In this document: positions 18,376-36,046 of the stretch, piece by piece
Layout of the letters: every line of letters starts with the position of its first letter
How positions within the stretch are numbered: position 1 is the first letter of the stretch
Source: Devosia sp. 66-22
GTDB taxonomy: Bacteria > Pseudomonadota > Alphaproteobacteria > Rhizobiales > Devosiaceae
Reading direction: 5' to 3'
Assembly (NCBI GenBank): GCA_001899065.1
Contig: MKUZ01000031.1
Span: forward strand, 269,687-333,686
Length of the DNA stretch: 64,000 nt
Program-made: the position numbers and the translations under genes
The notes under the pieces: generated by a model
The model's database searches: none
Told to the model about the DNA's origin: nothing
The model's input: only the letters and a program-made list of their open reading frames with translations

Positions 18376-18376
18376 G

Positions 18377-19276: not shown

Positions 19277-19303
19277 CTCGTCTCTAGAAAGGACCTACCA
19301 GCC

Positions 19304-19672: not shown

Positions 19673-19712
19673 AGCTATCGGCGGATGGCACTGGCCGTCC
19701 GCCTCCCCCATC

Positions 19713-21978: not shown

Positions 21979-22012
21979 AGGGTCGGCTCCACCCGCAGTT
22001 AGGCAGCAGCTA
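21979..22012 (+). repeat. R1 dispersed repeat, short copy
   Basis: GGGTCGGCTCCACCCGCAGT followed by AGGCAGCAGCT matches the central part of the R1 family seen at 25.2, 27.8 and 31.1 kb. It is the leftmost copy and lies just before the mgtA fragment. Confidence 0.7.
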
Positions 22013-22041: not shown

Positions 22042-22250
22042 AGGCGCCGCCAGACAGGGTGACAGTTACAATCGCTGGCAGGAGCTCTGGCGTGATGCCC
22101 ACGGCCAGCGCCGCCGCGAACAACAGGGACTCAAGCACCGGGCGCCCGAGCAAGACATTGGCGACGAGAACAATCGTCACAAGCACCAGCATCACCTGGG
22201 GCATCAGGAGACCGAACCGTCGGATGCCGCGCGCGAAGCTCGTCTCGGGT
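22042..22250 (-). pseudogene. mgtA: magnesium-translocating P-type ATPase (MgtA) fragment
   Basis: About 68 residues on the minus strand match only the M3-M4 region of MgtA-type ATPases: TSFARGIRRFGLLM, VMLVLVTIVLVANVLLGRPVLES, and AVGITPELLPAIVTVTLS. The phosphorylation domain expected next is absent, and the frame ends at once with CEER-stop. At the other end the sequence turns into the RTX gene. It is a small scrap left by rearrangement. Confidence 0.85.
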
Positions 22251-22289
22251 TTCCACGGCGGAACCGGGGGACTCGCCGGCACCGCGGGC

Positions 22290-23660
22290 ATGGGTGGTGA
22301 CTTTTCTGGCACCTTCGTAACCGGGACCTATCCGGGGTATGGGACGATCTTTGTTGCGGAGGGAGAGGATGGAACCCCCGGCCTGGTCGGTACGATGGGC
22401 GCGTCGTATCGCCCAGGGCTGACGGGAACCACCAATACCGGCATCCTGTTCGGAGACGGCAGCTCGGGTAGCGTGAAGCAGGGTGCGACACTGGTCTATG
22501 CGCATGGCCTCGACCTGGTGGCGAACGAGGCCACGGGCGAAACCGAAATCCGCTTCAACATCATCCGGATGGGCAATACCGCGGGTGACATCGATGTGAC
22601 CTGGGTGGTACAGGGCGCCACGAGCGGCAGTAGCGCAACGGGCGCCGATTTCACCGGCGGCAAGCTGCCCGGCGGTAAGGTGCGGCTGGAGGCCAAGGTC
22701 ACGGGCGAGACCTTTCATACTGGCGCGGTTGAGACAGTGTCCTTTACCGTCGCAAGCGACAGGATCGCCGAGGCGACCGAGGGCTTTCGCATCGTTCTGA
22801 CCGGGACCACGGGCGGCGTCGGCACTGTGCAACTCGGCACCTCGGTGCTGGCGGGCAGCATCGGGGACGGGGTGAGCATCGATGATGGAGTCAGCGGTCC
22901 GACCGCGGGGCCGGACCGGCTGATCGGCACCAATGCCGCGGATCGGATCGACGCGCTGGCCGGGAACGACATTATCTTCGGGCGCGGCGGCAAGGACACG
23001 CTGAGCGGGGGCAGCGGCAGAGACACGATCCAGGGTGGCAGCGGCAAGGACAGCCTGGATGGCGGCAGCAGCAAAGACACTGTGGACTATGCCGACAAGA
23101 CCAAGGCGGTCGTCGTCGCCCTCGATGGCTCCCACAAGGCGACGGTCAAGATCGGCGGCAAGGCCGAGGACACGATCCGGAACTTCGAGAACGTTATCGG
23201 CGGCTCCAAGGGCGACAAGCTCACCGGCGACGGCAAGGCCAATGTGCTCGACGGCGGCAAGGGGAACGACACGCTGAGCGGCGGCAAGGGCAACGACACC
23301 CTGATCGGCGGCACGAGCAAGGACAAGCTGACCGGCGGATCCGGTAAGGATCAGTTCGTGTTCGATGCCAAGCTGTCCAAGTCCAACGTCGATAGCATCG
23401 CCGACTTCAAGCACGATACCGACGTCATCGCGCTAGACGACGCGATCTTCGCCGTAATCGGCACCAAGCTCGACAAGTCCGAGTTCTATGCCAAGGCCGG
23501 CGCCACCAAGGCGCACGATGGCACCGATCACATCATCTACAACAAGTCGACGGGCAAGCTCTACTACGACGAGGATGGCAAGGGCGGTCATGCTGCAGTG
23601 CTCTTTGCGACGCTGAGCCACAAGCCAACGCTGGACCATGGGGATTTTGCCATCGCCTAG
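22290..23660 (+). CDS. RTX-type calcium-binding protein, probably 5'-truncated
   Basis: A 456-residue frame from the ATG at 22290. Residues 60-190 look like a Calx-beta-type segment (TGETEIRFNIIRMGNTAGDIDVTW, ATEGFRIVLTG). Residues 205-380 hold two clusters of glycine/aspartate nonapeptides (GGSGRDTIQ, GGKGNDTLS), and the C-terminus (IADFKHDTDVIALDD...FAIA) is the usual type I secretion end. The frame stays open another 77 codons upstream, but those are antisense to the mgtA scrap. The true N-terminus is thus probably lost, and the ATG at 22290 is only the first plausible one. No HlyB/HlyD genes are nearby. Confidence 0.8.
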   Translation: MGGDFSGTFVTGTYPGYGTIFVAEGEDGTPGLVGTMGASYRPGLTGTTNTGILFGDGSSGSVKQGATLVYAHGLDLVANEATGETEIRFNIIRMGNTAGDIDVTWVVQGATSGSSATGADFTGGKLPGGKVRLEAKVTGETFHTGAVETVSFTVASDRIAEATEGFRIVLTGTTGGVGTVQLGTSVLAGSIGDGVSIDDGVSGPTAGPDRLIGTNAADRIDALAGNDIIFGRGGKDTLSGGSGRDTIQGGSGKDSLDGGSSKDTVDYADKTKAVVVALDGSHKATVKIGGKAEDTIRNFENVIGGSKGDKLTGDGKANVLDGGKGNDTLSGGKGNDTLIGGTSKDKLTGGSGKDQFVFDAKLSKSNVDSIADFKHDTDVIALDDAIFAVIGTKLDKSEFYAKAGATKAHDGTDHIIYNKSTGKLYYDEDGKGGHAAVLFATLSHKPTLDHGDFAIA

Positions 23661-24320
23661 GCGCGGCCGCCAGTGGCCCATCGATTTGAAAGGTCGTCAC
23701 GCCGTCCATGGTCGAAGGAGGCCGTGAACCAGTGAGGCCGTGCGCGACGTCGTCGCCCGGATGGGTTCCGGCTGCCAACACTATCGGAGAAGCGATGGTC
23801 AGAATGGCCGCCACAAGGAGCCTGATAAGAGTCACTGTTCCCCATGCTGGTGCTCTGGTGGACTGTTTCAAAAGAAACATCCTGTCCAGGCGGGCCGCGT
23901 CGCCTTGGCTACGTCTACATGCGGGGCGGGTGCATAAACCGTTACCCTCTACCTGGGTCAGCGACGTCCTGGCATGAGGCGCTGCGTGCCGCAGACGCAA
24001 AGTTGCCTCCGGAGAGTTTGTGACTTGAGGGACTGAACGCCGGCAGCGAACCAGTATGCGCCCGGCCCGCTGCCGGCGCCTCCGGACTGACGAGCGGAGA
24101 ACGACGTCTTGGCGCGACCGGCAGGGGTGGTCCATAGTCAAGCTCGACTATCGCCCCGTGAGCTCAATCCGGCCCAGAATGCTGGCACTCGAAGTATGAC
24201 TAGAACAGAGTTCATATACACCTGTCACCCAGGCCAACTGCCGGTTGCTCTCTTGTCCGGACACTTCAACACGCGGGTCCTCCGCCGGAGAGAGATCATG
24301 AGCCGAAGCGTTCCTCTAGC
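23661..24320. other. no confident gene; possible scrap of an exported protein on the minus strand
   Basis: Between the RTX gene and the next fragments I see no supported gene. On the minus strand a frame from ATG 23880 begins with a signal-peptide-like stretch (LIRLLVAAILTIASPIVLAAG) but runs into the RTX gene without a recognisable domain, so it may be another truncated remnant. The right end carries the R1 copy at 24231-24305. Confidence 0.4.
24231..24305 (+). repeat. R1 dispersed repeat, left half
   Basis: This copy contains CCAACTGCCGGTTGCTCTCT, then ACTTCAACACGCGGGTCCTC and CGCCGGAGAGAGATCATGAG, and breaks off where the GGTCGGCTCC core should follow. The same order occurs at 27.76 and 32.93 kb. 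Confidence 0.75.
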
Positions 24321-24343
24321 GCACGAGCCGCGACACGACATCG

Positions 24344-24834
24344 AAGCTGACTGCAGTCGTCGCCACGTGGGGCGATGTCGAGCTTGAGGAGGTCTATGCA
24401 AGCCCCGCGCTGCAGGGCATCGACCGTCCTGGCGCCTATTTCGACCTGATCGGCGATCCCGCGGCCTCTTTGGCGAAGTTTCTGCCGGTGTATCGGGTCA
24501 AGGGTGGAGCGGGCTACATCTATGCCGCAAACTTCGATTCATCAGGGATCGGCGACCGGTACTACGTCGCGGTGAACGCGAGGGAATTGGCGCCGTCGTC
24601 CTACAGGGCGAGCTTGCGTGCCTTGTTGGAGAAGGATCAGACGCTCGATCCGACCGACTATAGTCTCTGGCCCGAGGTTGCGATGGCGACAAGGACCCTG
24701 AGCCTTGCAACATCCAGTAGCGTTGCAAATCAGCAGTTCGACGCAGTCGTCGACCGGTATTCCTCCAGCAAATTGCGGTCTCACGTCTGGGCCAGCCTGC
24801 CTAGCGGTGCAATCGATCGCTTGAAGCAGGGCAG
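24344..24834 (+). pseudogene. fragment of an unrecognised protein
   Basis: About 163 codons stay open in one frame with normal-looking amino-acid use (TWGDVELEEVYASPALQGID, GAYFDLIGDP, GAGYIYAANFDSSGIGDRYY). I do not recognise the family. There is no start codon with a ribosome site. The left end adjoins 22 bases (24321-24342) that are the reverse complement of the 75-residue gene at 25598, and the right end changes frame into a terminase 3' fragment. Both ends are therefore broken. Confidence 0.55.
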
Positions 24835-25092
24835 TTACTCCTCATTGAGCGAAAGGACGGTGTCGAGCAGCGTCACTGGGAGCGCAAGAAGGGTATGCTG
24901 AACGAGGCCCTCGACTGCCGCGTCTACGCCTATGCGGCGCTCCACGGGCTCTACCAAGTCCGGCAGCTGAACCTGGAGACGCAGGCAGCAAGTCTGTTCG
25001 AAAACGCCGCTAAGCTCGCCCAGACGCAGAGTGGGAACGCAGAACTCACAGTGCAGCCGCGTCGCCGGACCATTCGGCAGTCCCTGTACTGA
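24835..25092 (+). pseudogene. 3' fragment of a second terminase large-subunit gene
   Basis: From 24835 the frame reads LLIERKDGVEQRHWERKKG, then MLNEALDCRVYAYAALHGLY to RRRTIRQSLY-stop. This is a close match to the last 85 residues of the intact terminase ending at 30929. Homology continues about 100 bases beyond the stop (GGCGAGGCCCGGC..., TCGTTCTAATCC), so a whole 3' segment was duplicated or is left from another copy. Confidence 0.9.
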
Positions 25093-25214
25093 TGCCGAGC
25101 GCACCTCTGACAGTTTCTGGCGAGGCCCGGCACACCGCGCTCCTGTAGGACCCGGCGGGGGCGACCATAGAGAGTCGTTCTAATCCTGAGGAGAGACTTA
25201 CCTTGGTCGGCTGC

Positions 25215-25417
25215 CGGCTGTTGCCTCACCCGCACTTCTAATGCGTTGGGTCCTGTGCGGTGGCAGACAACGAGGGTCGGCTCCACCCGCAAGATGGAAG
25301 CAGCTTGACACGTGCGCATGGGTTCGCACGCGAGTGCCGGGCGAGGCTAATGAGTCAGCTTGGCCAGGTTGCAGCATCTGCCGGCCTGCGAACTGGGTGC
25401 GAACAGTGTTCGCACCC
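25215..25417 (+). repeat. R1 dispersed repeat, long copy with TGCGAAC boxes
   Basis: About 200 bases align with the region upstream of the intact terminase (27.77-27.97 kb). They run from ACTTCTAATGCGTTGGGTCC through GAGGGTCGGCTCCACCCGCA and GACACGTGCGCATGGGTTCG to the palindrome GTGCGAACAGTGTTCGCAC at 25397-25415. The half-site TGCGAAC occurs at 25387 and 25398 and inverted at 25322 and 25408. Confidence 0.88.
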
Positions 25418-25432
25418 TTTGGGGAGGGGATC

Positions 25433-25478
25433 GCCGTGCTGAATGCGGGCATTGACGTGCAGTCGATATGGGCGCCAC
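25433..25478 (+). pseudogene. internal scrap of a terminase gene
   Basis: GCGGGCATTGACGTGCAGTC followed by GATATGGGCGCCAC matches bases 30151-30180 of the intact terminase (residues around AGVDVQSMGA) with few changes and a small insertion. It directly follows the R1 long copy. An R1-plus-terminase unit thus once stood here and lost most of its body. Confidence 0.75.
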
Positions 25479-25597
25479 ACGAAATGGTCACCTTATTCTC
25501 ATCCACGTGCGGCAGCGGAGCCCACTCTGTACTGGTTCGGCTCGACTTCCGGGTCTGCGCAAGCGTGTGTCCGTCACCTCGAACAAAGGAGACGAGC

Positions 25598-25825
25598 ATG
25601 CCCATGATCAAAGTGAGCGACCACACGCTGCAGCTGATCCGCGAACAGGCGCGGGAGGGCTTCAGCTTCGTGTGTACGGCGACCCGCCGGGCTGACGGGC
25701 TGTGGAATGTTCCGGTCGATGACGCGGTTGCCATGAAGATCGCGATCGAGCGATTGCCGACCGAAACGGACGAGGATGTCGTGTCGCGGCTCGTGCGGGC
25801 GGCGATCGGGAGGCGACCTAACTGA
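25598..25825 (+). CDS. small conserved protein, 75 residues (paralogue of 33534-33761)
   Basis: The 75-residue product begins MPMIKVSDHTLQLIREQARE, contains LWNVPVDDAVAMKI and ends VVSRLVRAAIGRRPN. It is clearly homologous along its whole length to the product at 33534-33761. A GGAGA ribosome site lies 7 bases before the ATG, and the 40 bases upstream (AAGCGTGTGTCCGTCACC) are conserved between the two loci. I do not recognise the family. It is soluble, mixed alpha/beta, with no membrane segment. Conservation of both coding sequence and leader argues that it is real. Confidence 0.8.
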   Translation: MPMIKVSDHTLQLIREQAREGFSFVCTATRRADGLWNVPVDDAVAMKIAIERLPTETDEDVVSRLVRAAIGRRPN

Positions 25826-25909
25826 CGATACGACTGGGCGCTGGCAGGCCGGCCTCCGGTGCCAGGTGAAGCAAATATGAGCGCCATCCGGGCCAGTAGC
25901 TGGCGAATA

Positions 25910-26036
25910 GCCGACTATGCATCGAATGTGCGGAGTTCCGGGCCTTTGCGCGATATCAGATGTATAGCTGCTACTATGCATAGACATCGCGGAGTTCCGG
26001 GCCTTTGCGAGCGGCTCAAAACTGACCACTATGCAT
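25910..26036 (+). repeat. iteron-like array A
   Basis: ACTATGCAT occurs at 25914, 25973 and 26028 (spacing 59 then 55). TGCGGAGTTCCGGGCCTTTG follows the first copy, and CGCGGAGTTCCGGGCCTTTG the second. The middle box is part of the perfect palindrome CTATGCATAG. Array B at 26.9-27.06 kb is the same structure in inverted orientation. Confidence 0.85.
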
Positions 26037-26937
26037 CACGGCCCCTATTGCCGCCGCCAGATTGATGGCCGCCATCAGGGGCATGCTTGATCTGCCGGCC
26101 TACCCGATGGTGCATAGTCCCCTTTTCCTCTGTCGCTGCTGGCTGATCGCCGGCTGGAGCCGACCCTCATAGCCTTACAGCCGGGAAGGACCCGTCGGCC
26201 TCATCGTCCTCGGAGTGACGAGGGTGTGGTTGCCAGACACCTCGTCTTCGAGCCTGGGCGGGCTAGGTCATGGTTGTCCCACCACAGATGCTTCCGTAAT
26301 CGGGGCGGGCAACAGAGGCGATGAGGAACACATCTGGTGCTGCGGTGTCGGGCGTATGCACAAGGGCGTGCTTAGAACCCTCGCACAGACCGAGCACTAC
26401 ATGCTCACAGTCCTTAAGCGCATCATCGTTCAAAGACAAGAACATAGTTCGACTCAGAGTTCTCATCAGCGTTGTGACCATCACACTCGACGACAAGGAA
26501 CCTGGCAACCATCCCCCCCGGCGACTAGTCTCCAGCTAGTGGAGAAACGGGCGGGGTATCATACGGCTACCCCGCCGGCAGTCCGATCATTTGGCGTGTA
26601 CTGCGGCACATTCGAGGTTCGCCAGGTGCCCCTCACCCTGAAAGGACGCGGAACCATCAATATCGTGAAAGCCACGGAACGTGGGGCTGTGCTGGGGAGG
26701 ACCCTGAAAGTCGTGCCTTTCAGGGTGCGAGGCGAGGACTTCGCTCTTTTGTCTCGAAGTCATCGGGACATAGCGCCGATTGCGCAACCAAGCGGCCTGA
26801 AAACCGGGGCCGTTTCAGGCCTCTGCCAGTGCACGATGCCCGATAACGTCGACCCATCCGAGACATATCCGCACTTGTGCAACCAAACAGGGTGAAAGCC
26901 GGCCGGGGGCCGAGTTCACCGGCAGTCGCGGGCTCGA
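26037..26937. other. 900-base interior between two inverted arrays, no supported gene
   Basis: Several frames are open by chance, the longest on the plus strand from 26215 to 26895, but their products are rich in His, Cys, Ser and Thr with no domain-like pattern. A minus-strand R1 remnant lies at 26151-26202. The segment may be the body of a non-autonomous element bounded by arrays A and B. Confidence 0.45.
26151..26202 (-). repeat. R1 dispersed repeat, inverted copy
   Basis: Read on the minus strand it contains GGGTCCT and, after a diverged gap, TATGAGGGTCGGCTCCAGCC, matching the R1 core at 27825-27845. It is the only copy found in this orientation. Confidence 0.65.
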
Positions 26938-27061
26938 CGTATGATGGGGCGCTTTCGAGCACCCGCAGAGGCCCGGAAACTGGGAAACTCGACGTATGAT
27001 CGGGATCATACGCCACAATCCGGCCAAAGCCCCGGAACTCCGCACATCGGGCGTATGATCG
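26936..27061 (-). repeat. iteron-like array B (inverted relative to array A)
   Basis: CGTATGAT occurs at 26938, 26993 and 27052, that is, spacings of 59 then 55 when read on the minus strand, identical to array A. On the minus strand the 39 bases from 27062 align without gaps to 25912-25950 of array A. They share ATGTGCGGAGTTCCGGG, and most differences in the box are transitions. An extra inverted ATCATACG at 27005 makes a hairpin with the box at 26993. Confidence 0.85.
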
Positions 27062-27230
27062 GGTCTGCGCGGACCGAACGACAAAAAGCGCGGATCGACG
27101 ACCTCACAGTCGGCGGCCACGGGGGCAGGGGCGGCCCCCCGGGGCCGGTGGACTGTCGCGCGGGGGGGTGATGCGACCCAGAGCCAGTAGCCGCCCGTGT
27201 GGCCTCACTGCCGCCGGAGCAGCCAGGCCT

Positions 27231-27596
27231 CTACTCCTGGTTCGAGAGTCGTCGCAGGGATCGCCGGAATCGTCCCAGCCACCGTTGGGTGCTGCCATCG
27301 AGGACATTGTCATCCGCGCCGATCCACCACCAGATCGCTTCGTACTGAATGACAAGCTCATCGAGGTCGCTCGGCTGCTCTCGAGAGATGGCATCGGCGA
27401 TCTTGAGAGCATCCTCGATTGCCTCCGACCACGCGCCGTGCCGAGTCGCCGCAAGGGCCGGCTCGACCTCATCGCCTAAGGTCTGGTATCTGCGCCAAGC
27501 GCGTCCGGCCCGCGCCCGGTGGCGCTTGAGTTCCAGACCCAGGCGCAGCAAGGCGCTGCCCTTGTGTGTCGGTCGGCTCAACTCTCCACTCGCCAT
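27231..27596 (-). CDS. hypothetical protein, 121 residues (paralogue of 34870-35223)
   Basis: From the ATG at 27596, with GGAG 8 bases upstream, the product is a charged helical protein: LELKRHRARAGRAWRRYQTL, then DELVIQYEAIWWWIGADDNV, then [17 protein letters not shown]. Its C-terminal half aligns with the product at 34870-35223 (KFDAILWLIGVNESLLDSGD, RRLRRFGRDLSTL). The family is unknown to me. A longer frame to 27875 reads antisense through the R1 repeat and is not used. The two loci share no obvious upstream sequence. Confidence 0.7.
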   Translation of the reverse strand: MASGELSRPTHKGSALLRLGLELKRHRARAGRAWRRYQTLGDEVEPALAATRHGAWSEAIEDALKIADAISREQPSDLDELVIQYEAIWWWIGADDNVLDGSTQRWLGRFRRSLRRLSNQE

Positions 27597-27756
27597 TTGT
27601 CGCTCCGACGCAGTTTCGGTGCGATACACAAGGACGAGTTGCTCCTCACAGTCTAGCTCGTCTCGACAGTGCAGGGAACAAGTTGGACGGATCGGGCGGC
27701 GAGGCAGGAGGCCATCGAAAGCACGAGCTAGAACAATACTCGTCTCAGTCGATCGC

Positions 27757-27972
27757 TTAGCCGAAGTGCCGGTGGCCGTTCCATCCGACACTTCAATCCG
27801 TTGGGTCCTCCGCCGGCGAGAGATTATGAGGGTCGGCTCCAGCCGCAAGACGGAAGCAGCTGGACACGTGCACATGGGTTCGCATCATACTGCCGGACGC
27901 CAATAGTGAGTCAGTTTGGCCAGGTTGCGGCTATTGCCGCGCTGCGAACTGGGTGCGAACAGTGTTCGCACC
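27757..27972 (+). repeat. R1 dispersed repeat, long copy upstream of the terminase
   Basis: The fullest copy runs GCCGAAGTGCCGGTGGCCGT, ACTTCAATCCGTTGGGTCCT, CGCCGGCGAGAGATTATGAG, GGTCGGCTCCAGCCGCAAGA, GACACGTGCACATGGGTTCG, TGAGTCAGTTTGGCCAGGTT, and ends in the TGCGAAC palindrome. The 27597-28082 spacer holds no gene other than this element. Confidence 0.88.
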
Positions 27973-27993
27973 TTTTGGGGGGAAGGTGCGAAC
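27878..27993. promoter_or_regulatory. cluster of TGCGAAC boxes before the terminase gene
   Basis: TGCGAAC occurs directly at 27943, 27954 and 27987 and inverted at 27878 and 27964. The 27954/27964 pair forms the palindrome GTGCGAACAGTGTTCGCAC. The cluster ends 90 bases before the terminase start, where a DNA-binding small-terminase segment is encoded. It may be a packaging (cosB/pac-like) site or an operator; the sequence alone cannot decide. Confidence 0.6.
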
Positions 27994-28082
27994 GCCGACT
28001 AGGGGCTTTACCGAGCAAATGCACCACCGGTTAAGGGCGAGCCGGTACTTTTGGGGGTGGATCGGACAGAACGGAGGGCGGC

Positions 28083-30929
28083 ATGGGTGCAGATGTGACG
28101 GGCGTTAGCCGCCGCGCCTACGCCAAGTCGCGCGGCATCTCCGAGGCCGTGGTCCGCAAGTACCTCTCCCAGGGCAAGCTCAGCGACGCTCTTCTGCCAG
28201 ATGGGACATTGGATGTCGAAAAAGCCGATCAGCTCCTCGCCGCCTCCATCACACGAGATCGTGCGCAGCCGGTCGAGTTGAGGACGGCAAAAGCTCGACA
28301 TCTGCGGGCAAAAGTCCGCCGCGTTGGCGATGCAGTGCGGGACCTTGAGAGAAGTCTGGTCCACGCCGACCGTGTTGGGCCGATTGCCAGTGTGGTGGGC
28401 ATCATCGTCGCCAACGCTCTGCGTCCGATCGCCGAGCGCATGGCGCCGATCATAGCCGGGATGAACGGGAAGGATGCGCACCTGGCGCTTCGCAACGCCG
28501 TGTCTGACGCGCTGGAGATCATCTCGTCCACGATAGTGGCCGGCGTGGATGGTGCAAAGGGGGGCGAAGAGAGAGAACTAGAGCTCGATGAGCTGAGCGA
28601 GCCTCAGCTCCTTGCAGTGCAGGCCAATCTGCAGGCCGACAAGCTTGAACTCGAGCGCGCCCTGGCGAAGGGGATCCTCTGTCAGGTTGCCGATGTGGTT
28701 GAGGCGCATGAGGAGCAGATGGTCGTCTCCAAAACTCTCGTGTTGGCAATGCCCGGCCGGGTGGCGCCGCACGCGGAGAGCGAGACCGCCGAGCAGCTAA
28801 AGGTACGGATCACCGAGGAGATCAAAGACGCCCTTGCGGCCGGTCCGCCTGTGGAGGTGCGTGATGAGAACCAACTCGCTGGCCCCTTTGCGGAGCTGGC
28901 CGGCCAAGAGGTTTTGCGGCGAGCGCTCATCGAGAGCAGCCGGGCCATCAACCGGCCGCCGCCACGCATGTCCGTCCCTGACTGGGCCGACGCCTACCGC
29001 TCCCTCTCGACGTCGGCTGGCGCTGTAGGCGGTCCATGGCAGACGCACCGCGTGGAGGTCGCGCGCGGGCCCATGATGGCTGTGACCGAGCCGGACGTCG
29101 AGACGATTACCATCATGTGCTGCACCCAGACGATGAAGACCTCGGTTCTGGAGAATACGCTCGGATACTTCGCTCATCTCGACCCGGCACCTATGCTGGT
29201 TCTGCAGCCCAAGGACGAGATGGCCGACGCCTTCTCAAAGGAGCGTATCGCCCCGATGATCGCGAGCAGCCCCGCGCTGCGCGCCATCATGGGAGACCGT
29301 CGTACGCGGACTGGCGCCGACACGTTGCGCTTCAAGAAGTTCCCGGGTGGGTTTTTGGCGATGGCTTCGGCGGGCTCACCGTCCAACCTCGCCATGCGCG
29401 CCATTCGCATCGTGCTCCTCGACGAAATCGACAAGTACGAGACGAGCAAGGAAGGCGATCCGGTCGCGCTGGCCGAGGAGCGCACCGCGACCTTCACGAC
29501 CAATCGGCTCAGCATCCGCGCCTGCTCCCCGACCTGGGAGGAGACCAGCCGCATCTACAAGTCCTACATGGAAGGCGACCAGCGTAAGCCCTTCGTTAAT
29601 TGCCCACACTGCGGGCACGCGCAGGTCCTCGACTTCTTCGCCCACGTGGGCTGGAACAAGAACGAGGATGGCAGTCACCGGCCGGAGACCGGGCACATCC
29701 ACTGCGAAGCCTGCGGTGCCGAGTGGTCAGAGGCTGAGCGTCTCAAGATCGTCTCGACCAAGCACGCGATCCAGCACCGCCAGACCAAAGTCTTTCACTG
29801 CTGCGGCTCCCGCCAGGATCCGCTGATCGAGCGTCGGTGGGAGTGGGACGACGAGCACCAGGTCGGATACGCCATCTGCAAGGAGTGCGGTCGCCGGGGG
29901 GTTCCGAACCGGCACGCGAGTTTTTGGGCATCCAAGCTCTACTCGCCGTTCATCAGCGTGGCTGGGCTGGTGGAGAAGTGGCTGAGTGCCCAAGGCGATC
30001 AGGACACTAAGCAGACCTTCTACAACACGCAGCTGGGGGTCCCGTTCAAGGCGGAGACACACCGGGCCATCGATGCGCACTCCCTCGCGGCGCGGGCGGA
30101 GCCTTACGATGGCACCAAGGAGCTTCCCGAGGGCGTTGTGGTGCTGACGGCGGGCGTTGACGTGCAATCGATGGGCGCCACGGGGCAGGGGCGCCTCGAG
30201 GTTGAGGTCGTCGGATGGGGTCTAGGGGAAGAATCGTGGTCCATCGCAATCGCGGCGTTCGAGGGTGACCCGGCTTCGCCTCAGGTCTGGAGCCAGCTCG
30301 ATCAGCTCCTCATGGCACCTTACAAGCACCCGCTCGGCTTCAACCTCTACCTCGCTGGAGCGTGCATCGACTCGGGCGGCCACAACGCCCAGGACGTCTA
30401 CCGCTTCGTGAGGGAGCGCAGCGGAGGCAATATCTGGGCCATCAAAGGCACCAATGCCGACCGGGGCGTGAACTGGTCACCCATCTGGCCGGACGCGACC
30501 CAGGAGCGTCCTAAGCAACGCTACCGCACCGGGTACCGTCCGACCATTGTCGGCGTCAACGCGGCCAAGTGGGCGGTGCACCAGCAACTGCTCGTCGATG
30601 AGCCCGGCCCGGGCTACTGTCACTTCCCCACTGGCAGGCCTGATAACTGGTACCATCAGCTGACCAGCGAGGAGCTGCTGATTGAGCGAAAGGACGGCGT
30701 CGAGCAGCGCCGCTGGAAGCTCAGGAAGAGCATGCTGAACGAGGCCCTCGACTGCCGCGTCTACGCATATGCGGCCCTCAACGGGCTCTACCAAGTTCAC
30801 CAGCTCAACTTGGAAAAGCAGGCAGCAAGTCTGTTCCGAAATGCGGCTGAGCTCGCCCGGCAGCAGTATGGGACGGCAGAAGTCAGAGTTGAGCCGCGTC
30901 GCCGGACCATTAGACATTCCCTAGACTAG
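28083..30929 (+). CDS. terminase: duplicated small-subunit-like segments fused to a GpA-type large subunit
   Basis: A 948-residue protein, about 300 longer than ordinary GpA terminases. Residues 10-50 form a Nu1-like HTH (RRAYAKSRGISEAVVRKYLS...GTLDVEKADQLL). Residues 60-165 and 185-265 are two helical segments that both resemble the region after the HTH in small terminase subunits (LRAKVRRVGDAVRDLERSLV and LELERALAKGILCQVADVV). The GpA part starts near 300 (MSVPDWADAYRSLS), with a P-loop-like CTQTMKTS lacking the usual Gly, Walker B IVLLDEIDKYE, Cys pairs CPHCG, CEACG and CKECG, and nuclease residues in TAGVDVQSMG and CIDSGGHNAQDVYRF. No other phage gene flanks it. The ATG has AGGGCGGC just upstream. 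Confidence 0.88.
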   Translation: MGADVTGVSRRAYAKSRGISEAVVRKYLSQGKLSDALLPDGTLDVEKADQLLAASITRDRAQPVELRTAKARHLRAKVRRVGDAVRDLERSLVHADRVGPIASVVGIIVANALRPIAERMAPIIAGMNGKDAHLALRNAVSDALEIISSTIVAGVDGAKGGEERELELDELSEPQLLAVQANLQADKLELERALAKGILCQVADVVEAHEEQMVVSKTLVLAMPGRVAPHAESETAEQLKVRITEEIKDALAAGPPVEVRDENQLAGPFAELAGQEVLRRALIESSRAINRPPPRMSVPDWADAYRSLSTSAGAVGGPWQTHRVEVARGPMMAVTEPDVETITIMCCTQTMKTSVLENTLGYFAHLDPAPMLVLQPKDEMADAFSKERIAPMIASSPALRAIMGDRRTRTGADTLRFKKFPGGFLAMASAGSPSNLAMRAIRIVLLDEIDKYETSKEGDPVALAEERTATFTTNRLSIRACSPTWEETSRIYKSYMEGDQRKPFVNCPHCGHAQVLDFFAHVGWNKNEDGSHRPETGHIHCEACGAEWSEAERLKIVSTKHAIQHRQTKVFHCCGSRQDPLIERRWEWDDEHQVGYAICKECGRRGVPNRHASFWASKLYSPFISVAGLVEKWLSAQGDQDTKQTFYNTQLGVPFKAETHRAIDAHSLAARAEPYDGTKELPEGVVVLTAGVDVQSMGATGQGRLEVEVVGWGLGEESWSIAIAAFEGDPASPQVWSQLDQLLMAPYKHPLGFNLYLAGACIDSGGHNAQDVYRFVRERSGGNIWAIKGTNADRGVNWSPIWPDATQERPKQRYRTGYRPTIVGVNAAKWAVHQQLLVDEPGPGYCHFPTGRPDNWYHQLTSEELLIERKDGVEQRRWKLRKSMLNEALDCRVYAYAALNGLYQVHQLNLEKQAASLFRNAAELARQQYGTAEVRVEPRRRTIRHSLD

Positions 30930-31547
30930 CCCGATGCCGCGTGCGCCCCGACGGGTGCTGGCGGGCCAGACGCGGTGGTGGCACATGGGCGTCACGTGAG
31001 AGAGAAGACGCTAGGCAATCGTTCTAATCCGGCTAGAATGGAACTTAGTCGACTTCCGGCGAGTACCATTTCAAATGGGCCGGGCCTTCCGCGGGTGGAG
31101 ATAGAGGGTGGCTCCAGCGGCAGGTAGGCAGCACCTAATGGAGAAAACCTGCTTGCTTCTTTCGGTCCTAGCGGCCGGCATCGGAGGGGGTACCCGAAGA
31201 GTTTACCAAACAGGCAGTGGTGCGTAAAAGGACCATTGATAGGCAGCTGCCGACTCATCAACGCCCCTTCTCTCCGAGACTTCCGGACGTTGCGCCGGCT
31301 TGCGCAAGTAGTGCTCGCGAACATTGGGGCAAACCCCAGCTTTGGATTTGGCGAAGTCGAGGAGAATTCTGCCATGGGGGAAGAAACGGCGGCACCGTAC
31401 GGAACGCCTCAGCCGTCGGGCCTAAAATGGGGCTCGGCAGCGGCGCGACCATAGGCGCGCGAAGTTAGCGTTCTTGACCGGGTCAACCGGCTGCGTCGGC
31501 TGTGCGCCGTAGGTGGGCACTCAAGGTGCCCGTAGAACCGCCACGAC
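30930..31547. other. intergenic region behind the terminase, no supported gene
   Basis: The first 130 bases resemble the DNA behind the truncated terminase copy (TGCTGGCGGGCC..., TCGTTCTAATCC at 31021), so they belong to the duplicated unit. Short overlapping frames at 31217-31468 have no domain or ribosome site. The modA gene ends at 31548 on the other strand. Confidence 0.5.
31088..31136 (+). repeat. R1 dispersed repeat, core copy
   Basis: GCGGGTGGAGATAGAGGGTG followed by GCTCCAGCGGCAGGTAGGCA keeps the R1 core. The AGGCAGCA end agrees with the copy at 21979 rather than with the GGAAGCAGC form of the long copies. Confidence 0.65.
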
Positions 31548-32291
31548 CTACTCGAACTCGTAGCCGTACTTGGCGATTATCGCCTTACCCTCGTCGCTCT
31601 GAAGGAACTCGAGAAAGGCCATGGCCGCAGGGTTAGCTTCGCCGGTCTTCAGGAGAACGGCGTCTTGAAGGATCGGGGAGTAGTTGTCGCGTGGCACACG
31701 CCATAGCTGAAGCGCCGGCTTATCGATAACCTGACTCAAGGCGACGAACCCGAGCTCTGCGCTGCCACTGTCGACAAAATGAAGCGCCTGGGAGATGTTC
31801 TCGCCGACCACTTGTTTCGGTGCAATGACATCCGTCAGCCCCAGCTTCTCAATGGTCTCCACTGCCGCGGCTCCATAGGGGGCGGTCTTGGGGTCCGCGA
31901 TCGCAATGTGCTGGAAGTCACCACCCGCTAGCACCGCAGCACCGTCGGTCAGGTCGATAGAGGGGCTGTAGAGAACTACTTTGCCGACTGCGTAGGTGAA
32001 GACGGAACCTTTAACGCCAAGACCGTCGGTAACCGCTTGTGTGGGACGCTTGCTGTCGGCTGCGAGGAAAACCTCAAACGGAGCAGCCTGACTAATCTGA
32101 TTGTATAGGGCTCCAGTCGCACCAAAACTAAACACTACGTCGTCGCCAGTCCTTGCCTTGAAGGCGGCGCCGAGTTCTTCCGCCGGTTTGACAAAGTTGG
32201 CAGCGACCGCTGCGCTGACCGTTGCTGCATGGACTGATGACGAAGCCAGAAGCGCAATAACGAAGCCGCCTAGAAGGGCCGAGAGGCGCAT
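31548..32291 (-). CDS. modA: molybdate ABC transporter substrate-binding protein
   Basis: A 247-residue periplasmic protein with a signal peptide ending near SSSVHA|ATVSAAVAANF. The oxyanion-binding segments are FSFGATGALYNQISQAAPFEVFLAADS and FVDSGSAELGFVALSQV. ModA delivers molybdate or tungstate to ModBC. Here modB and modC are missing: the DNA downstream is intergenic, so the protein has no local permease. It follows the modE-like gene on the same strand and has a palindrome right before its start. Confidence 0.92.
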   Translation of the reverse strand: MRLSALLGGFVIALLASSSVHAATVSAAVAANFVKPAEELGAAFKARTGDDVVFSFGATGALYNQISQAAPFEVFLAADSKRPTQAVTDGLGVKGSVFTYAVGKVVLYSPSIDLTDGAAVLAGGDFQHIAIADPKTAPYGAAAVETIEKLGLTDVIAPKQVVGENISQALHFVDSGSAELGFVALSQVIDKPALQLWRVPRDNYSPILQDAVLLKTGEANPAAMAFLEFLQSDEGKAIIAKYGYEFE

Positions 32292-32302
32292 ATCATGGCT
32301 CG

Positions 32303-32322
32303 ATATGTTTGGTTGAACATAT
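32303..32322. promoter_or_regulatory. ModE-like operator before modA
   Basis: ATATGTT (32303-32309) and AACATAT (32316-32322) are perfect inverted arms with a six-base spacer, 11 bases before the modA start. Size and AT-rich arms fit ModE boxes, and a ModE-type gene is adjacent. Confidence 0.65.
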
Positions 32323-32362
32323 TAAGGCTGCCATAACGCCCACTGGCGGGCAAGGCGCTTTT

Positions 32363-32722
32363 TCATCGGTTTAAGGCAGCCCTTACAGTGGCAACGTTTT
32401 CTTTGATGGCCGCAGCCGCCTTTTCCTGCATCGAACGGTAGCTGGCCAAGACCATCTGCCCATGGTTGGTCAGCACGGCGCCGCCTTTGGTTTTGCCGCC
32501 ACGTGACGAGGAAACCAGAGCGGAACCGAAGCCCGTATTGAGCGCTCGGACGATCTCCCAGGCCCGCTTGTAGCTCATCCCCATTTTCTGACTCGCGGCC
32601 GCAATTGAACCAGTGGAGGCTATCAGTTCAAGTAGATCAGCGCGGCCTGGGCCGAGGTAGAATTGATCGTCAAAGATGACCCGAAGGCTGATATGGAATT
32701 TGTTATCGTCGGTCGGGCTCAT
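32363..32722 (-). CDS. modE: ModE-type winged-helix regulator (DNA-binding domain only)
   Basis: A 119-residue protein matching the N-terminal LysR-like winged helix of ModE: LGPGRADLLELIASTGSIAAASQKMGMSYKRAWEIV, then TKGGAVLTNHGQMVLASYRSMQ. The C-terminal MOP molybdate-binding domains of full ModE are absent, as in many alphaproteobacterial short forms, so sensing must differ or another ligand is used. The ATG at 32722 is preferred over the GTG four codons earlier. Confidence 0.85.
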   Translation of the reverse strand: MSPTDDNKFHISLRVIFDDQFYLGPGRADLLELIASTGSIAAASQKMGMSYKRAWEIVRALNTGFGSALVSSSRGGKTKGGAVLTNHGQMVLASYRSMQEKAAAAIKENVATVRAALNR

Positions 32723-32734
32723 GCTGCACCCCAC

Positions 32735-33533
32735 TAGTGTTGGGGGATAAGGCCATGAACGTTAGCGCTAGGACAAGTCAAAGGTTCGGACTGTGAAGTT
32801 TGATGGGTGCAACGATGGCGGCCGTGCGGTCGAGGATAGACCATCAGCGTATCCAAACGGACAAGTCAGAGACTCAATGAGTCGGCCGTTGTAATAACGT
32901 TCCATTGATGTCAGCGGAATTTACTTGGCCAGACTGCCGGTAGCCATTCTGCCGGATACTTCAATGCTCTGGGTCCTCTGGCGGCGGGAGATAAATGATG
33001 GTCGGCTCCCGCCGCGCATAGGCACCCCGTGGGGGGATCTACCTCTGCCTCTTGGCGGAGTGGGCGACAGGCAAGCTAAGCCGCCGCACGTCGACTGATT
33101 AGGGGCGCGGCGGTAGAGGCCTTGGAGTAGAGGAGGAAAAACTGGAAGCCGCAAAGGCCGAGCATTGGGGGAGTCTGTGACTGCCCCGAGAGGGAACATG
33201 CGAAGTGAGCAGAAATCATCGATGCTTGCGCGGCTTAAGTCGACCGCGGGTGGCTTTGGAGTAAGGGGCATCTTTGCCCTACTCGTCATCTAGAACGACG
33301 TGTTGCGTCAGCTTTTTCTGTCGGATTGGCCGAAGCTTCGCGGCAGTTGCGTTGGGACGCGGCGTCATCGTCATCGGACTTAGCGGCCATCGGCGGTGCC
33401 ACCTTAGATGATAAACTAAACAGTCACCGCAATGCCATCTGAGGCAGCCGAACGGTCACTCCGGCTGCTTTCATCTCGACTTATCGGCCGCAGCAAGCGG
33501 TGTGTCCGTCACCTTAAACTTGAGGAGACGACC
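32735..33533. other. 800-base region without a supported gene
   Basis: Apart from the R1 copy at 32930-33025, neither strand carries a frame with a ribosome site and plausible composition. The right end is the conserved leader of the 75-residue gene (GTGTGTCCGTCACCTTAAAC). Confidence 0.5.
32930..33025 (+). repeat. R1 dispersed repeat, rightmost copy
   Basis: It reads TTGGCCAGACTGCCGGTAGC, ACTTCAATGCTCTGGGTCCT, GGCGGCGGGAGATAAATGAT and GGTCGGCTCCCGCCGCGCAT, in the same order as the copy at 27757. It lacks the TGCGAAC-containing right part. Confidence 0.8.
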
Positions 33534-33761
33534 ATGCCGAAGATCAAAGTGAGTGGCCATACGCTACAACTCATCCAGGAGCAGACGCAGGTAGGCTTCA
33601 ACTTCGCCTATACGGCGACCCTACGGGGCGACGGATTTTGGGATGTCCCCGTGGACGACGAAATCGCGATGAAGATCGCAGCAGCCCGACTGCCCGCTGA
33701 GACGGACGATGATGTGGTATCGCGGCTGGTGAGGGCGGCGATCGCCAAAAGGCCTGACTGA
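33534..33761 (+). CDS. small conserved protein, 75 residues (paralogue of 25598-25825)
   Basis: The product (start MPKIKVSGHTLQLIQEQTQV, end VVSRLVRAAIAKRPD) has the same length as its paralogue and is identical at roughly seven of ten positions by eye, with the conserved core WDVPVDDEIAMKIAAARLP. The ribosome site GAGGAG and the GTGTGTCCGTCACC leader are also shared. Its role is unknown. The receiver-domain gene follows 220 bases later on the same strand. Confidence 0.82.
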   Translation: MPKIKVSGHTLQLIQEQTQVGFNFAYTATLRGDGFWDVPVDDEIAMKIAAARLPAETDDDVVSRLVRAAIAKRPD

Positions 33762-33982
33762 CCGAAGCCTGCGGCGCTCGACCGTCTGGCACGCGATGCA
33801 ATGCACATCCCTCGCGTATTGGCGTACCGGCGAATGCGGTGTACTATCCCAGTCAGAACCCGAGAGGCGGCCGACATCAGCTCGCGGCCAGTGATCCTGT
33901 TCTCGGGGTGCGCTCCTTCATAATCGTAAGGAAAACCGTGTCGCCAGTTGGCGATGCGAACCTATCGATGCGGGGGGTCCCG

Positions 33983-34330
33983 ATGACCGATCGAAAGATG
34001 CTTATCGTCGAGGACGAAGCGATCGTCGCGCTTGACCTTGAGCTCCACTTCGAACTGGCGGGCTTTGTCCCGACGGTGGCAACAAGTGTTCAACAGGCGC
34101 TGGCAACGTTGGCGTCCATGCCAGTCGACTTCGCGCTTCTCGACTATCACGTGGGTGGCGAGGATACCGCGCCGGTTGCAGTGGCTCTCAAAGAACTCAG
34201 GATTCCCTTCGCGGTGTGTTCCGGCTCGCAGATCGCAGACCTTGGAGAGGCCTTCGCGGGCGTTGAAAATATTGGCAAGCCGTTCAGCTCAGAAGCTCTC
34301 GACGAAACGGTCAAGCGTTTGCTGAGTTGA
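33983..34330 (+). CDS. single-domain response regulator (receiver domain)
   Basis: A 115-residue CheY-like receiver. It starts DRKMLIVEDEAIVALDLELHF with the acidic pair ED, the phospho-acceptor Asp lies in FALLDYHVGGED, and the conserved Lys in ENIGKPFSSEAL. There is no output domain. A longer start at 33839 adds unrelated residues, and the GGGGGGT run before 33983 supports the chosen ATG. Such lone receivers with an LLDYHV core are common in Hyphomicrobiales, often as phosphate sinks. No kinase is nearby. Confidence 0.88.
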   Translation: MTDRKMLIVEDEAIVALDLELHFELAGFVPTVATSVQQALATLASMPVDFALLDYHVGGEDTAPVAVALKELRIPFAVCSGSQIADLGEAFAGVENIGKPFSSEALDETVKRLLS

Positions 34331-34355
34331 GAGCCATCGTGGCGATAGCGGAGGC

Positions 34356-34523
34356 ATGATGACAACCGTTCGAGCGGCCGGTATCGCGGCCATTGTTGTG
34401 ATCGCTTTGATAGGAGTGCGGAAGCTCGACGCCAGCTGGCTCGACATATCGATTGTGGCTGTAATGGCGGCTGCCGCAATCGTCGTCTGTTTGCGACTGA
34501 CGAGCACCGGGAGCAACAGGTGA
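34356..34523 (+). CDS. small membrane protein, 55 residues
   Basis: From MMTTVRAAG the frame encodes two hydrophobic helices (IAAIVVIALIGV and ISIVAVMAAAAIVVCLRL) separated by RKLDASWLD. A GGAGG element lies only two bases before the ATG, so initiation may be weak. It starts 25 bases after the receiver gene on the same strand. The family is unknown; it is supported mainly by composition. Confidence 0.5.
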   Translation: MMTTVRAAGIAAIVVIALIGVRKLDASWLDISIVAVMAAAAIVVCLRLTSTGSNR

Positions 34524-34606
34524 TGCTAGCGCACGAGCCTTTCAGGGAGCCACGGCATGGTGCAACTGCGGCTCACCGTAGTCGCGTCCGAACATCGGAG
34601 CTGACG

Positions 34607-34756
34607 ATGGAACAAGTTTTGTATCGGATACTCGAAGTCGTCCTGGGTGTCGGCCTCGGCGCTGCTCTCCTCGGCGCCATTGGACCACGTTCTTTGGATG
34701 GCGATGACGTTCAGCCCACTCCAGCATGCGCGACCACCCGAGACCGCCTCCTTTGA
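34607..34756 (+). CDS. small membrane protein, 49 residues
   Basis: MEQVLYRILEVVLGVGLGAA begins a single membrane helix (VVLGVGLGAALLGAIG) followed by a polar tail. GGAG lies 6 bases before the ATG, a better ribosome site than any upstream start. It lies in a run of small plus-strand genes. The family is unknown. Confidence 0.5.
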   Translation: MEQVLYRILEVVLGVGLGAALLGAIGPRSLDGDDVQPTPACATTRDRLL

Positions 34757-34869
34757 GGCCGTCTCGCCTAACAAGCTGACCTGTAGCGGCCCTGCGCGGA
34801 CGATTGAGCCTTGAGCTAGACTTCCTCCGCAACTCACCCCGTTGTCGGTCTTGTACTCGGAGACGTCGC

Positions 34870-35223
34870 ATGAGGCGAGACAGCGAGATAGATACTAGCG
34901 CCCTTGCACGGGAACTATCTCGCCTGCGTCGTCGCGCGGCCCGTCAGAAGCGCAATGTCAGCTCGAACCTAGAAAAGTGGCAAGATTGGTCCGCAACCAT
35001 GGATGAGATTGCCACCCTTACCCTGCGCTTCGTTGCCCGTCCCGCTGATGACCTCGGGGGCTTGGCCGCCAAGTTCGACGCCATACTCTGGCTGATCGGG
35101 GTCAACGAGAGCCTTCTCGACAGCGGTGACCTGCGACGCTTACGCCGGTTCGGTCGAGACCTTTCCACCCTTGCGGGGGACCAGTCACAAGCATCGTCGG
35201 GCAAGGCATACCGCACTCGTTAG
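34870..35223 (+). CDS. hypothetical protein, 117 residues (paralogue of 27231-27596)
   Basis: A basic helical protein: ALARELSRLRRRAARQKRNV, then MDEIATLTLRFVARPADDLG, then KFDAILWLIGVNESLLDSGD and LRRLRRFGRDLSTLAG. The ATG at 34870 follows GGAGA by 7 bases; a longer frame from 34804 has no such site. Similarity to the minus-strand product at 27231-27596 is confined to the C-terminal 70 residues. The function is unknown. Confidence 0.72.
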   Translation: MRRDSEIDTSALARELSRLRRRAARQKRNVSSNLEKWQDWSATMDEIATLTLRFVARPADDLGGLAAKFDAILWLIGVNESLLDSGDLRRLRRFGRDLSTLAGDQSQASSGKAYRTR

Positions 35224-35364
35224 CCTAGAAACTCGCGGCCATAACAAAGCTGTTGGACTGTCCGTGCGTAGCAAGCATGTGTTGCGTTCACCGCCCGGGC
35301 CACTCCGGGCCCTTGTCGGTAACGCCGGGCAATCCCGCTCTGGCCGTTTGACAAGGAGTTCACC

Positions 35365-35664
35365 ATGGCCAAGACGCCGACTAAATCCACCGTACCGCGC
35401 ATCGTCCGCGGAAAGGCCGCCAAGACCCGCAAAGCCGCCCCAACGCCGGCAAAGCAGACCAGCAAGCAGGACCAGGTCCTCGCTCTCCTCCGCCGCCAGA
35501 ACGGTGCCTCGATCGACGAGATCGTCGCGGCCACCGATTGGCAGCCTCACAGTGTTCGTGGGTTCCTCAGCGGCGCGGTCAAGAAGCGGCTCGGGATCGA
35601 CGTCGTTAGCGAGAAGGGCGAAGACGGTGTCCGCCGCTATCATGTCGCGGCACTGAAGTCGTGA
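35365..35664 (+). CDS. DUF3489 domain-containing protein
   Basis: A 99-residue protein with a Lys/Ala/Thr-rich N-terminal third and a DUF3489 winged-helix-like domain: SKQDQVLALLRRQNGASIDEIVAATDWQPHSVRGFLSGAVKKRLGI. The pattern resembles small DNA-binding domains common in alphaproteobacterial accessory DNA, often next to recombinase genes, though none is visible here. AAGGAG precedes the ATG. Confidence 0.88.
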   Translation: MAKTPTKSTVPRIVRGKAAKTRKAAPTPAKQTSKQDQVLALLRRQNGASIDEIVAATDWQPHSVRGFLSGAVKKRLGIDVVSEKGEDGVRRYHVAALKS

Positions 35665-35801
35665 GCGCGCTTGTGATCTTCAGGTGGCGTCCAAGAGGCC
35701 GCCACTTCTCTATCTCCAAGCGCATCTGGGCTTCGACATAGTCCAACGTTGAAAGCATCGGTAGGTGTTTCTTGTGCCCGTGAAGTTTGCAACGCTCTAA
35801 A

Positions 35802-35837
35802 ACCCGCGGGAGATGTCCCGCGGGTGCTCTTTCTTTA
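35802..35837 (+). terminator. rho-independent terminator
   Basis: ACCCGCGGGA and TCCCGCGGGT form a perfect 10 bp stem with a GATG loop, followed by GCTCTTTCTTT. It lies 140 bases behind the DUF3489 gene on the plus strand. The rest of the 35665-36046 spacer shows no gene. Confidence 0.85.
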
Positions 35838-36046
35838 CGTTGCGGTCGAGGTTTGTGGCGACTAGCGGCGACTTCCACGTCGCTCTGAGACAATAGGCTG
35901 TCTCCGGAAGTTCGGAGTTCTAGTCCTCTGCAGGAGCCTCTTCACACGATGGTAGTTTGGAGCCGTGTCGCACTATCTAGGCGACAGAACGGAACCCACA
36001 TCGGGTGAGCCCCTCTGATGTCTTAGCTGCTGTGATGCCGGGGACC

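What the first reader, a model, noticed from the sequence alone, without database searches (positions are those of the whole stretch)
27757..30929. Orphan terminase with fused small-subunit segments and a dedicated upstream repeat
One 948-residue protein joins a Nu1-like HTH, two small-terminase-like helical segments and a complete GpA-type large subunit. No portal, capsid, tail, lysis or integrase gene is nearby. A R1 repeat and a cluster of TGCGAAC boxes lie directly upstream, and the same repeat-plus-terminase arrangement is seen as broken copies at 24.8-25.5 kb. This could be a mobile or phage-parasitic unit that carries its own packaging enzyme and recognition site. The arrangement is seen; the function is inference.
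Basis: partly seen in the sequence, partly recalled or inferred. Interest (0 to 1): 0.75.

Follow-up and report, generated by a model that had tools for sequence, protein, structure and literature searches.

The report
One-piece phage packaging enzyme without phage
Two intact copies (and pieces of others) of a phage DNA-packaging enzyme whose two usual subunits are joined into one protein sit apart from any phage in a Devosia-like bacterial chromosome, each behind a conserved DNA-box cluster and between repeats, which suggests a tiny packaging-type mobile unit rather than a leftover of a virus.

Summary
ORF 28083-30929 (948 aa) is a Nu1-type HTH, two helical segments that both align to the core of ordinary small terminases, and a GpA-type large subunit with its catalytic residues kept. 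A second intact copy (86% identical) lies elsewhere in the genome; a congener carries a third, cut by contig ends. Purifying selection is strong (dN/dS 0.17; 0.07 in codons 280-600). All three are preceded by the same 105-bp repeat plus a TGCGAAC-box cluster (34 of 35 box positions invariant, 114 of 186 outside) and followed by the repeat again; window-C27 homology ends at the repeats. Deletion derivatives with one shared junction occur at two loci. No capsid, tail or portal family was found nearby, and the lambda-type portal family is absent from the genome. None of 759 matching phage records matched over 80% of the protein; the 58 other strong Nu1-like hits in 385 Alphaproteobacteria lie in short frames. 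Relatives of the N-terminal half stand alone in capsid-less, primase-bearing elements. Best reading: a multi-copy, repeat-bounded packaging cassette depending on a helper phage. Mobility and function are inferred: no empty site was found and nothing was tested at the bench.

The parts
27757..27861 (+). 5' direct repeat (DR) of the unit
   Evidence: repeat-model hit 92.5 bits; window-C27 and window-G003 similarity begins here (27787 and 27752)
27862..28082 (+). R1 box region: five TGCGAAC boxes at 27878(-), 27943(+), 27954(+), 27964(-), 27987(+); includes 17-bp palindrome TGCGAACAGTGTTCGCA at 27954-27970
28083..30929 (+). TerS-TerS-TerL fusion protein, 948 aa
28083..28256 (+). Nu1-type HTH (residues 1-58)
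   Evidence: phrog_57; HTH profile hits N-termini of ordinary TerS; the only confidently modelled part, pLDDT about 67-86 by ten-residue block over residues 1-50
28260..28562 (+). TerS core A (residues 60-160)
   Evidence: aligns to cores of ordinary TerS
28575..28868 (+). TerS core B (residues 165-262)
   Evidence: aligns to the same cores of ordinary TerS
29025..29750 (+). GpA ATPase domain (residues 315-556)
   Evidence: PF05876 E 3.1e-70; D447 and the four Cys kept
29913..30782 (+). GpA nuclease domain (residues 611-900)
   Evidence: PF20454 E 5.6e-83; D693, D763, D890 kept
31068..31136 (+). 3' direct repeat (partial, degenerate)
   Evidence: repeat model 25.6 bits, positions 34-106; window-C27 similarity ends at 31151
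24838..25127 (+). relic of a further copy: terminase C-terminal end
   Evidence: 81% identical to 30675-30967
25203..25305 (+). DR of the mini copy
   Evidence: repeat model 75.3 bits
25306..25493 (+). mini copy: R1 boxes joined at about 25424 to a terL piece (= 30129 onward)
   Evidence: same junction, to within the alignment, as C27:1587
24231..24302 (+). partial solo DR
32925..33026 (+). solo DR
26136..26197 (-). half DR inside a second repeat family (26135-26515)
21979..22011 (+). short DR fragment

Best explanation
A compact, multi-copy unit of about 3.4 kb: direct repeat - TerS-binding box cluster - one-piece terminase - direct repeat. SHOWN: architecture, kept active-site residues, purifying selection, conserved boxes, repeats on both sides of all three copies, tandem and deletion derivatives, no capsid family found nearby. 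INFERRED mechanism: the N-terminal HTH binds the TGCGAAC boxes (a cosB-like site that may also act as its own operator); the two TerS cores take the place of a TerS multimer; the tethered TerL cuts nearby DNA and docks on the portal of an invading lambda-portal phage, so that the unit and its neighbouring DNA are packaged and spread by a helper phage. Head-to-tail arrays and solo repeats would arise by recombination between the repeats.
For: Second intact copy in the same genome (C27:2040-4880, 86% aa) and a third in a congener, cut by contig ends (C26 residues 1-231, C51 residues 899-948). dN/dS 0.174 over 947 codons, 0.068 in codons 280-600. R1 upstream of all three copies. DR on both sides of all three. 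Window-C27 homology spans 27787-31151, i.e. DR to DR. Same junction (about 27980 to 30129) in mini copies at two loci. 27 of 28 conserved TerL columns kept, nuclease Asp triad included. Two-core TerS relatives (33% and 32% identical) sit beside a DNA polymerase/primase-like gene and a sigma factor, one of them also with an integrase; 50 ORFs of these two elements gave TerS, primase, sigma, integrase and methyltransferase families and no structural one (22 of 22 families shown). Orphan status: PF05136 portal 0 in own genome, control rings in 3 of 14. A helper kind exists in the family: G052 prophage with lambda portal, separate Nu1 TerS and a 41% identical TerL. Lambda precedent, from passages of PMC9026076: TerS binds repeated R sites, R2 in opposite orientation.
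Against: No transposase or integrase inside the unit; no empty site found. The 5' context is partly shared between window and G003 (Y-type gene, 70% DNA), so these two may be inherited rather than moved. The DR core also occurs in another repeat family and in G008, where no fusion was found, so the DR is not specific to the terminase. No lambda-portal helper in this genome; its two portals are of the other family, PF04860, and at least the C18 one has its own TerS and TerL. A 3.4-kb unit would need to be packaged as a concatemer or with flanking DNA. The boxes could be only an operator.
Confidence: 0.42

Rival explanations
1. Domesticated terminase: the host (or a resident island) keeps the enzyme for a chromosomal job such as cutting or clearing invading phage DNA, or for gene transfer; the boxes are an autoregulatory operator and the repeats are bystanders.
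For: Strong purifying selection; orphan status; palindromic operator-like boxes next to an HTH gene; no integrase in the unit.
Against: Patchy: fusion-type hits in own genome and G003 only, among 19 genus genomes; two diverged copies plus broken ones fit a mobile unit better than a fixed host function; no PADLOC match.
Confidence: 0.22
2. Repeat-driven array: the terminase is passenger cargo in DR-bounded arrays that expand by recombination between repeats, together with small gene families (X and Y); no packaging function is used.
For: DRs also lie beside X/Y genes; head-to-tail mini and full copies sharing one DR; DR core present without the fusion in G008.
Against: A passenger should not keep codons 280-600 at dN/dS 0.07 or its box cluster at 34 of 35 positions.
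Confidence: 0.18
3. Remnant of a lambda-like prophage in which terS and terL fused while the rest was deleted.
For: GpA/Nu1 ancestry is clear; broken copies exist nearby; an integrase lies about 10 kb upstream of the G003 copy and another about 40 kb from the C27 copy.
Against: Two intact fused copies of 948 and 947 aa under purifying selection; no structural phage family found near any of three copies (25 of 54 Pfam and 25 of 26 PHROG families shown for the other two loci); relatives of the N-terminal half are themselves in elements without structural families.
Confidence: 0.1
4. Terminase-driven mobile element that moves inside the cell: the enzyme cuts at its own box/repeat site and the freed unit re-inserts by repair, without any capsid.
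For: DR-to-DR unit at loci with different 3' flanks; the same internal deletion at two loci; no other mobility enzyme in the unit.
Against: Terminases are not known to join DNA (recalled, not tested); no empty site seen; target-site duplication not tested.
Confidence: 0.08

Closest known systems
Lambda-type terminase (gpNu1-gpA) with cosB
   Same: GpA ATPase and nuclease domains, Nu1-type HTH, cluster of repeated sites in both orientations just upstream of the terminase gene (passages of PMC9026076)
   Different: one polypeptide with two TerS cores; no lambda portal in the genome and no capsid family found nearby; multi-copy chromosomal unit
Phage-inducible chromosomal islands that redirect packaging with their own TerS or Rpp (passages of PMC10690885, and PMC9026076)
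   Same: capsid-less element carrying a packaging-specificity protein and a putative own site
   Different: carries the motor too; no integrase or replication gene in the unit
Capsid-forming PICIs (passages of PMC10690885)
   Same: encode both terminase subunits
   Different: they also encode capsid, portal and protease; none found here
Stand-alone two-core TerS in primase-bearing elements of G003 and G008
   Same: HTH plus two TerS cores, 33% and 32% identical to residues 1-286
   Different: not fused to TerL; larger elements with sigma-factor and primase-like genes; an integrase was identified in the G003 one

Membership tests
Lambda-type (GpA/Nu1) terminase | GpA ATPase and GpA nuclease domains with catalytic residues | tested here: met
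Lambda-type (GpA/Nu1) terminase | Nu1-type small subunit | tested here: met
   phrog_57 E 3.5e-15; Pfam Phage_Nu1 not reached
Lambda-type (GpA/Nu1) terminase | small and large subunit as separate proteins | tested here: not met
   one 948-aa frame, and 947 aa in the second copy
Lambda-type (GpA/Nu1) terminase | cos site recognised by the small subunit | tested here: inconclusive
   conserved box cluster upstream; no binding test, no cosN identified
Lambda-type (GpA/Nu1) terminase | lambda-family portal partner | tested here: not met
   PF05136: 0 in own genome; control rings in 3 of 14
Phage satellite of the PICI kind | integrase and replication genes | tested here: not met
   none in 27757-31136; none so described among the 25 PHROG families of 44 flanking window ORFs
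Phage satellite of the PICI kind | mobilised by a helper phage | not testable with these tools
   needs infection or induction
Capsid-forming PICI | capsid, portal and protease genes | tested here: not met
   none among families shown
Prophage remnant | other phage structural genes, or relaxed selection | tested here: not met
   integrases at about 10 and 40 kb from the G003 and C27 copies
Insertion sequence or transposon | transposase and terminal inverted repeats (target duplication not tested) | tested here: not met
   only direct repeats at the ends; no further gene in the unit
Gene transfer agent | terminase inside a GTA head cluster | tested here: not met
   no head family shown beside any copy; the HK97-type head genes lie on contigs C17 and C18

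The most novel reading that the evidence does not exclude
A new class of minimal mobile element in which a single-chain terminase is the only mobility enzyme: it recognises its own box cluster, cuts repeat-bounded units out of head-to-tail arrays and either feeds them into any passing lambda-portal phage or lets them re-insert directly.
Probability: 0.2. Interest if true: 0.9.

Novelty: new variant of a known kind. Interest (0 to 1): 0.62.

Why it matters
Terminases are built of a separate recognition ring (TerS) and motor (TerL), and how the two couple is hard to study. A natural single-chain version with a mapped candidate site would be a direct handle on that question. If the unit is packaged by helper phages it would be among the smallest hitchhikers known (my judgement, not searched), carrying only the motor and its address; if not, it would be a terminase with a job outside virus assembly.

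Tried and rejected
Fold search: two AlphaFold jobs (window residues 1-306 with one relative; the whole protein alone) gave mean pLDDT 45 and 37, so no fold library was searched. PDB sequence search found nothing useful (best E 0.77, a de novo design).

Direct internal duplication of the two TerS segments: not detectable; only their shared match to ordinary TerS supports it. The 20 ordinary TerS used there came from hits of the same profiles, and the E-values are for 20 sequences, so they flatter the match.

RNA element: the DR folds no better than shuffles (z 0.38 on + and -1.34 on - for 27756-27861), and the box region folds well (z -3.6), which I put down to the inverted boxes. Rfam over 23800-36000 gave one match below its gathering score, outside the unit.

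Integron-like cassette array: considered because of GTTGGGT in the DR (motif recalled); rejected on inspection because sequence on both sides of it is conserved; no integron integrase was searched for.

Empty site: of 8 other genus genomes with the neighbouring gene 20517-21833, stretches of 5 were fetched (6 stretches); they gave changed order or contig ends, no clean empty site.

Wider homologues: viral contigs with the protein and with two alignments and with two exact DNA patterns, plasmids and phages by blastn with the 327-bp R1 region, phages by tblastn with residues 1-281: none. Plasmids by tblastn: 219 records, none covering 80%. Genome contigs: one, a Devosia nanyangense MAG.

Defence system: no PADLOC match.

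ORF picks: the 44 window and 39 other-locus ORFs were greedy longest-ORF picks (44 of 46 and 39 of 42 listed; left out were the terminase itself, window:40367-40756, L060:4109-4447 and L060:12751-13620; window:19685-20680 was replaced by 19713-20495). Such picks can miss real genes, as they missed the C17 portal, so 17 further window ORFs were scanned; the other two loci got no second pass. The 28 ORFs of L058 listed were not scanned.

Papers: 'orphan terminase' 0; fused-subunit searches 0; one search listed one paper, two, none seen beyond the listing. Searches listed 7 and 8; of these I saw passages of PMC10690885, PMC9026076 and PMC9611059, and also of PMC11389934; no paper was read whole. 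That the fusion is not in print rests only on these searches of an open-licence library.
Full report
WHAT IS THERE. ORF 28083-30929 (+) encodes 948 aa. PHROGs place residues 280-925 in the large terminase family phrog_15 (E 2.6e-207) and residues 5-167 in the small terminase family phrog_57; Pfam gives GpA_ATPase 315-556 and GpA_nuclease 611-900. A direct profile comparison of A with B is not significant.

THE ENZYME LOOKS ALIVE. Of 28 columns conserved in at least 90% of 25 TerL relatives, 27 are kept, including D447 of Walker B, Cys 507/510/541/544 and the nuclease Asp 693/763/890; the one change is S to C at 481 (motif names recalled). The second intact copy (C27:2040-4880, 947 aa) differs by 228 synonymous and 158 non-synonymous changes, dN/dS 0.174; by stretch 0.276, 0.297, 0.370 in the TerS part, 0.068 in codons 280-600, 0.131 in 600-900 and 0.453 in the last 47. 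The N-terminal 231 codons of the G003 copy give 0.24 and 0.20 against the two.

WHERE ELSE. Own genome: two intact copies and one relic. Among 19 genus genomes, 6 have any match; only own and G003 have fusion-type matches (84% identity over residues 1-231 running to the contig end, and 70% over residues 899-948 at another contig start). That these are two ends of one copy is inferred. G003 C26 has the contig length (33,783) of JACRAF010000042.1, a Devosia nanyangense MAG returned by the genome-contig scan, so the host genus is Devosia by inference. Family: 27 of 136 genomes match; outside own and G003 no listed match covers both halves. Order: 13 of 397 genomes match the N-terminal profile; only the own genome in a 964-aa frame, the others in 183-382 aa. 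Class: phrog_57 in 385 genomes, 115 with a match; of the 60 matches listed at E 2.2e-11 or better, 58 are in frames of 157-359 aa and the other two are the own genome's. Three weaker listed matches (E about 1e-4) lie in frames of 881 aa (G871) and 703 aa (G615, twice) and were not examined; at most 8 candidates per genome were scored. Phages: 759 records match, none over 80% of the protein; the 30 shown start at residue 207-292, and residues 1-281 alone match nothing at 0.01. A fusion with an unrelated TerS would not be seen this way.

THE SITE. R1 is present upstream of all three copies and, as further or broken copies, at three more places. The five TGCGAAC boxes keep order, orientation and near-constant spacing (65, 11, 10, 22-23 bp) in window and G003; C27 has one imperfect box. 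Box columns are invariant at 34 of 35 positions in three full copies versus 114 of 186 outside (p 6.9e-6); with all six copies 26 of 28 versus 51 of 90. The palindrome TGCGAACAGTGTTCGCA is in 6 of 6 R1 copies and nowhere else in the 20 stretches scanned, window included. In lambda, TerS binds repeated R sites of cosB with R2 inverted (passages of PMC9026076); this is a likeness, not proof.

THE UNIT. A 107-position model of the repeat (built from 12 copies of the window's genome and G003, so their hits are partly built in; 150 candidates scored per genome) finds 13 copies in the own genome, 10 in G003, 5 partial copies in G008 and one marginal copy each in four others, of 19. Each terminase copy has the repeat on both sides in the same orientation; the window's 3' one is partial. 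Window-C27 similarity covers 27787-31151 at 84.7%, that is, repeat to repeat. 3' neighbours differ at the three places: a solute-binding protein and a LysR-type HTH gene in the window (modA/modE by recall), other ORFs at C27 (L015:5342-6481 and 6674-7525), X/Y genes in G003. On the 5' side window and G003 share a Y-type gene (70%), C27 does not. Mini copies at 25203-25493 and C27:1367-1675 join R1 to terL at the same point, while the extra R1 of G003 runs on to the equivalent of 28033 and is not such a mini. Tandem neighbours share one repeat. This fits a unit that multiplies by its repeats; whether it moved as a unit is not settled, since no empty site was found.

SURROUNDINGS. None of the 25 PHROG families of 44 window ORFs (8-56 kb) carries a structural description, nor did 17 further ORFs of 21.8-36 kb add one. 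For 39 ORFs near the other copies, the 25 of 26 PHROG and 25 of 54 Pfam families shown include an integrase but nothing structural; by similarity that integrase is L060:1544-2854, about 10 kb upstream of the G003 copy, and another lies at L063:16778-17971, about 40 kb from the C27 copy. The own genome has no lambda portal but two of the other portal family: C17 with portal, protease and capsid (its TerL was not identified), and C18 with portal, capsid and its own TerS and TerL. The TerL relative in G052 (41%) belongs to a prophage with separate Nu1 TerS, lambda portal, protease and baseplate genes, showing both the ordinary arrangement and a possible helper kind in this family.

RELATIVES OF THE N-TERMINAL HALF. 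G003:C25 and G008:C100 encode stand-alone two-core TerS proteins (33% and 32%) next to a gene matching phage DNA polymerase/primase families and a sigma factor, and in G003 an integrase. Fifty ORFs of the two elements gave no TerL or structural family (22 of 22 families shown at E 1e-4). These look satellite-like and suggest that the two-core TerS came from such elements.

VERDICT. Ancestry and architecture: solid. Own recognition site: likely. Repeat-bounded multi-copy unit: solid; mobile: probable. Helper-dependent packaging: the best single explanation at about 0.4, with a domesticated function and passive repeat-driven spread as serious rivals.

Noticed in passing
window 25541-25826 and 33475-33762; also L061, L065, L067, L068: Small gene family X (about 75 aa, ending DDDVVSRLVRAAI) recurs next to the direct repeats in two Devosia genomes; no Pfam, NCBIfam or PADLOC match for the copy at 33.5 kb.
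   Followed up: partly
window 27234-27875 (-) and 34804-35220; also L060, L061, L066, L067, L068: Second small gene family Y recurs beside the repeats, in G003 directly upstream of X (Y-X pairs); function unknown.
   Followed up: partly
window 26135-26515; L064:59-399, L066:9505-9897 and 12648-13032: A second repeat of about 380-500 bp shares the core of the direct repeat and is found in G008, where no fusion was found.
   Followed up: partly
window 25903-26009 and 26964-27070: Further inverted and tandem repeats around TATGCAT/CGTATGAT and CGGAGTTCCGGGCC, between the mini and full copies.
   Followed up: no
L057 about 5200-19800 (G003:C25) and L059 about 8600-18200 (G008:C100): Putative capsid-less elements with primase-like gene, two-core TerS and sigma factor (integrase in G003; a nucleotidyltransferase-like gene in G008 by eye).
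   Followed up: partly
L132 (G000:C17) and L133 (G000:C18): Two head-gene clusters elsewhere in the genome, one possibly a gene transfer agent (by eye), one with its own terminase.
   Followed up: partly
L060:1544-2854, L063:16778-17971, L065:5815-6585: Three related integrase genes (the last one short) lie on contigs that also carry the direct repeat.
   Followed up: no
window 22059-23660: RTX-repeat protein directly beside a fragment of the direct repeat at 21979.
   Followed up: no
residues 506-548 of the fusion (29598-29726): Zinc-ribbon of the TerL weakly matches the Lar restriction-alleviation family (Pfam E 0.0008, NCBIfam E 0.0044, both below cut-off), probably only the CxxC motifs.
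   Followed up: no
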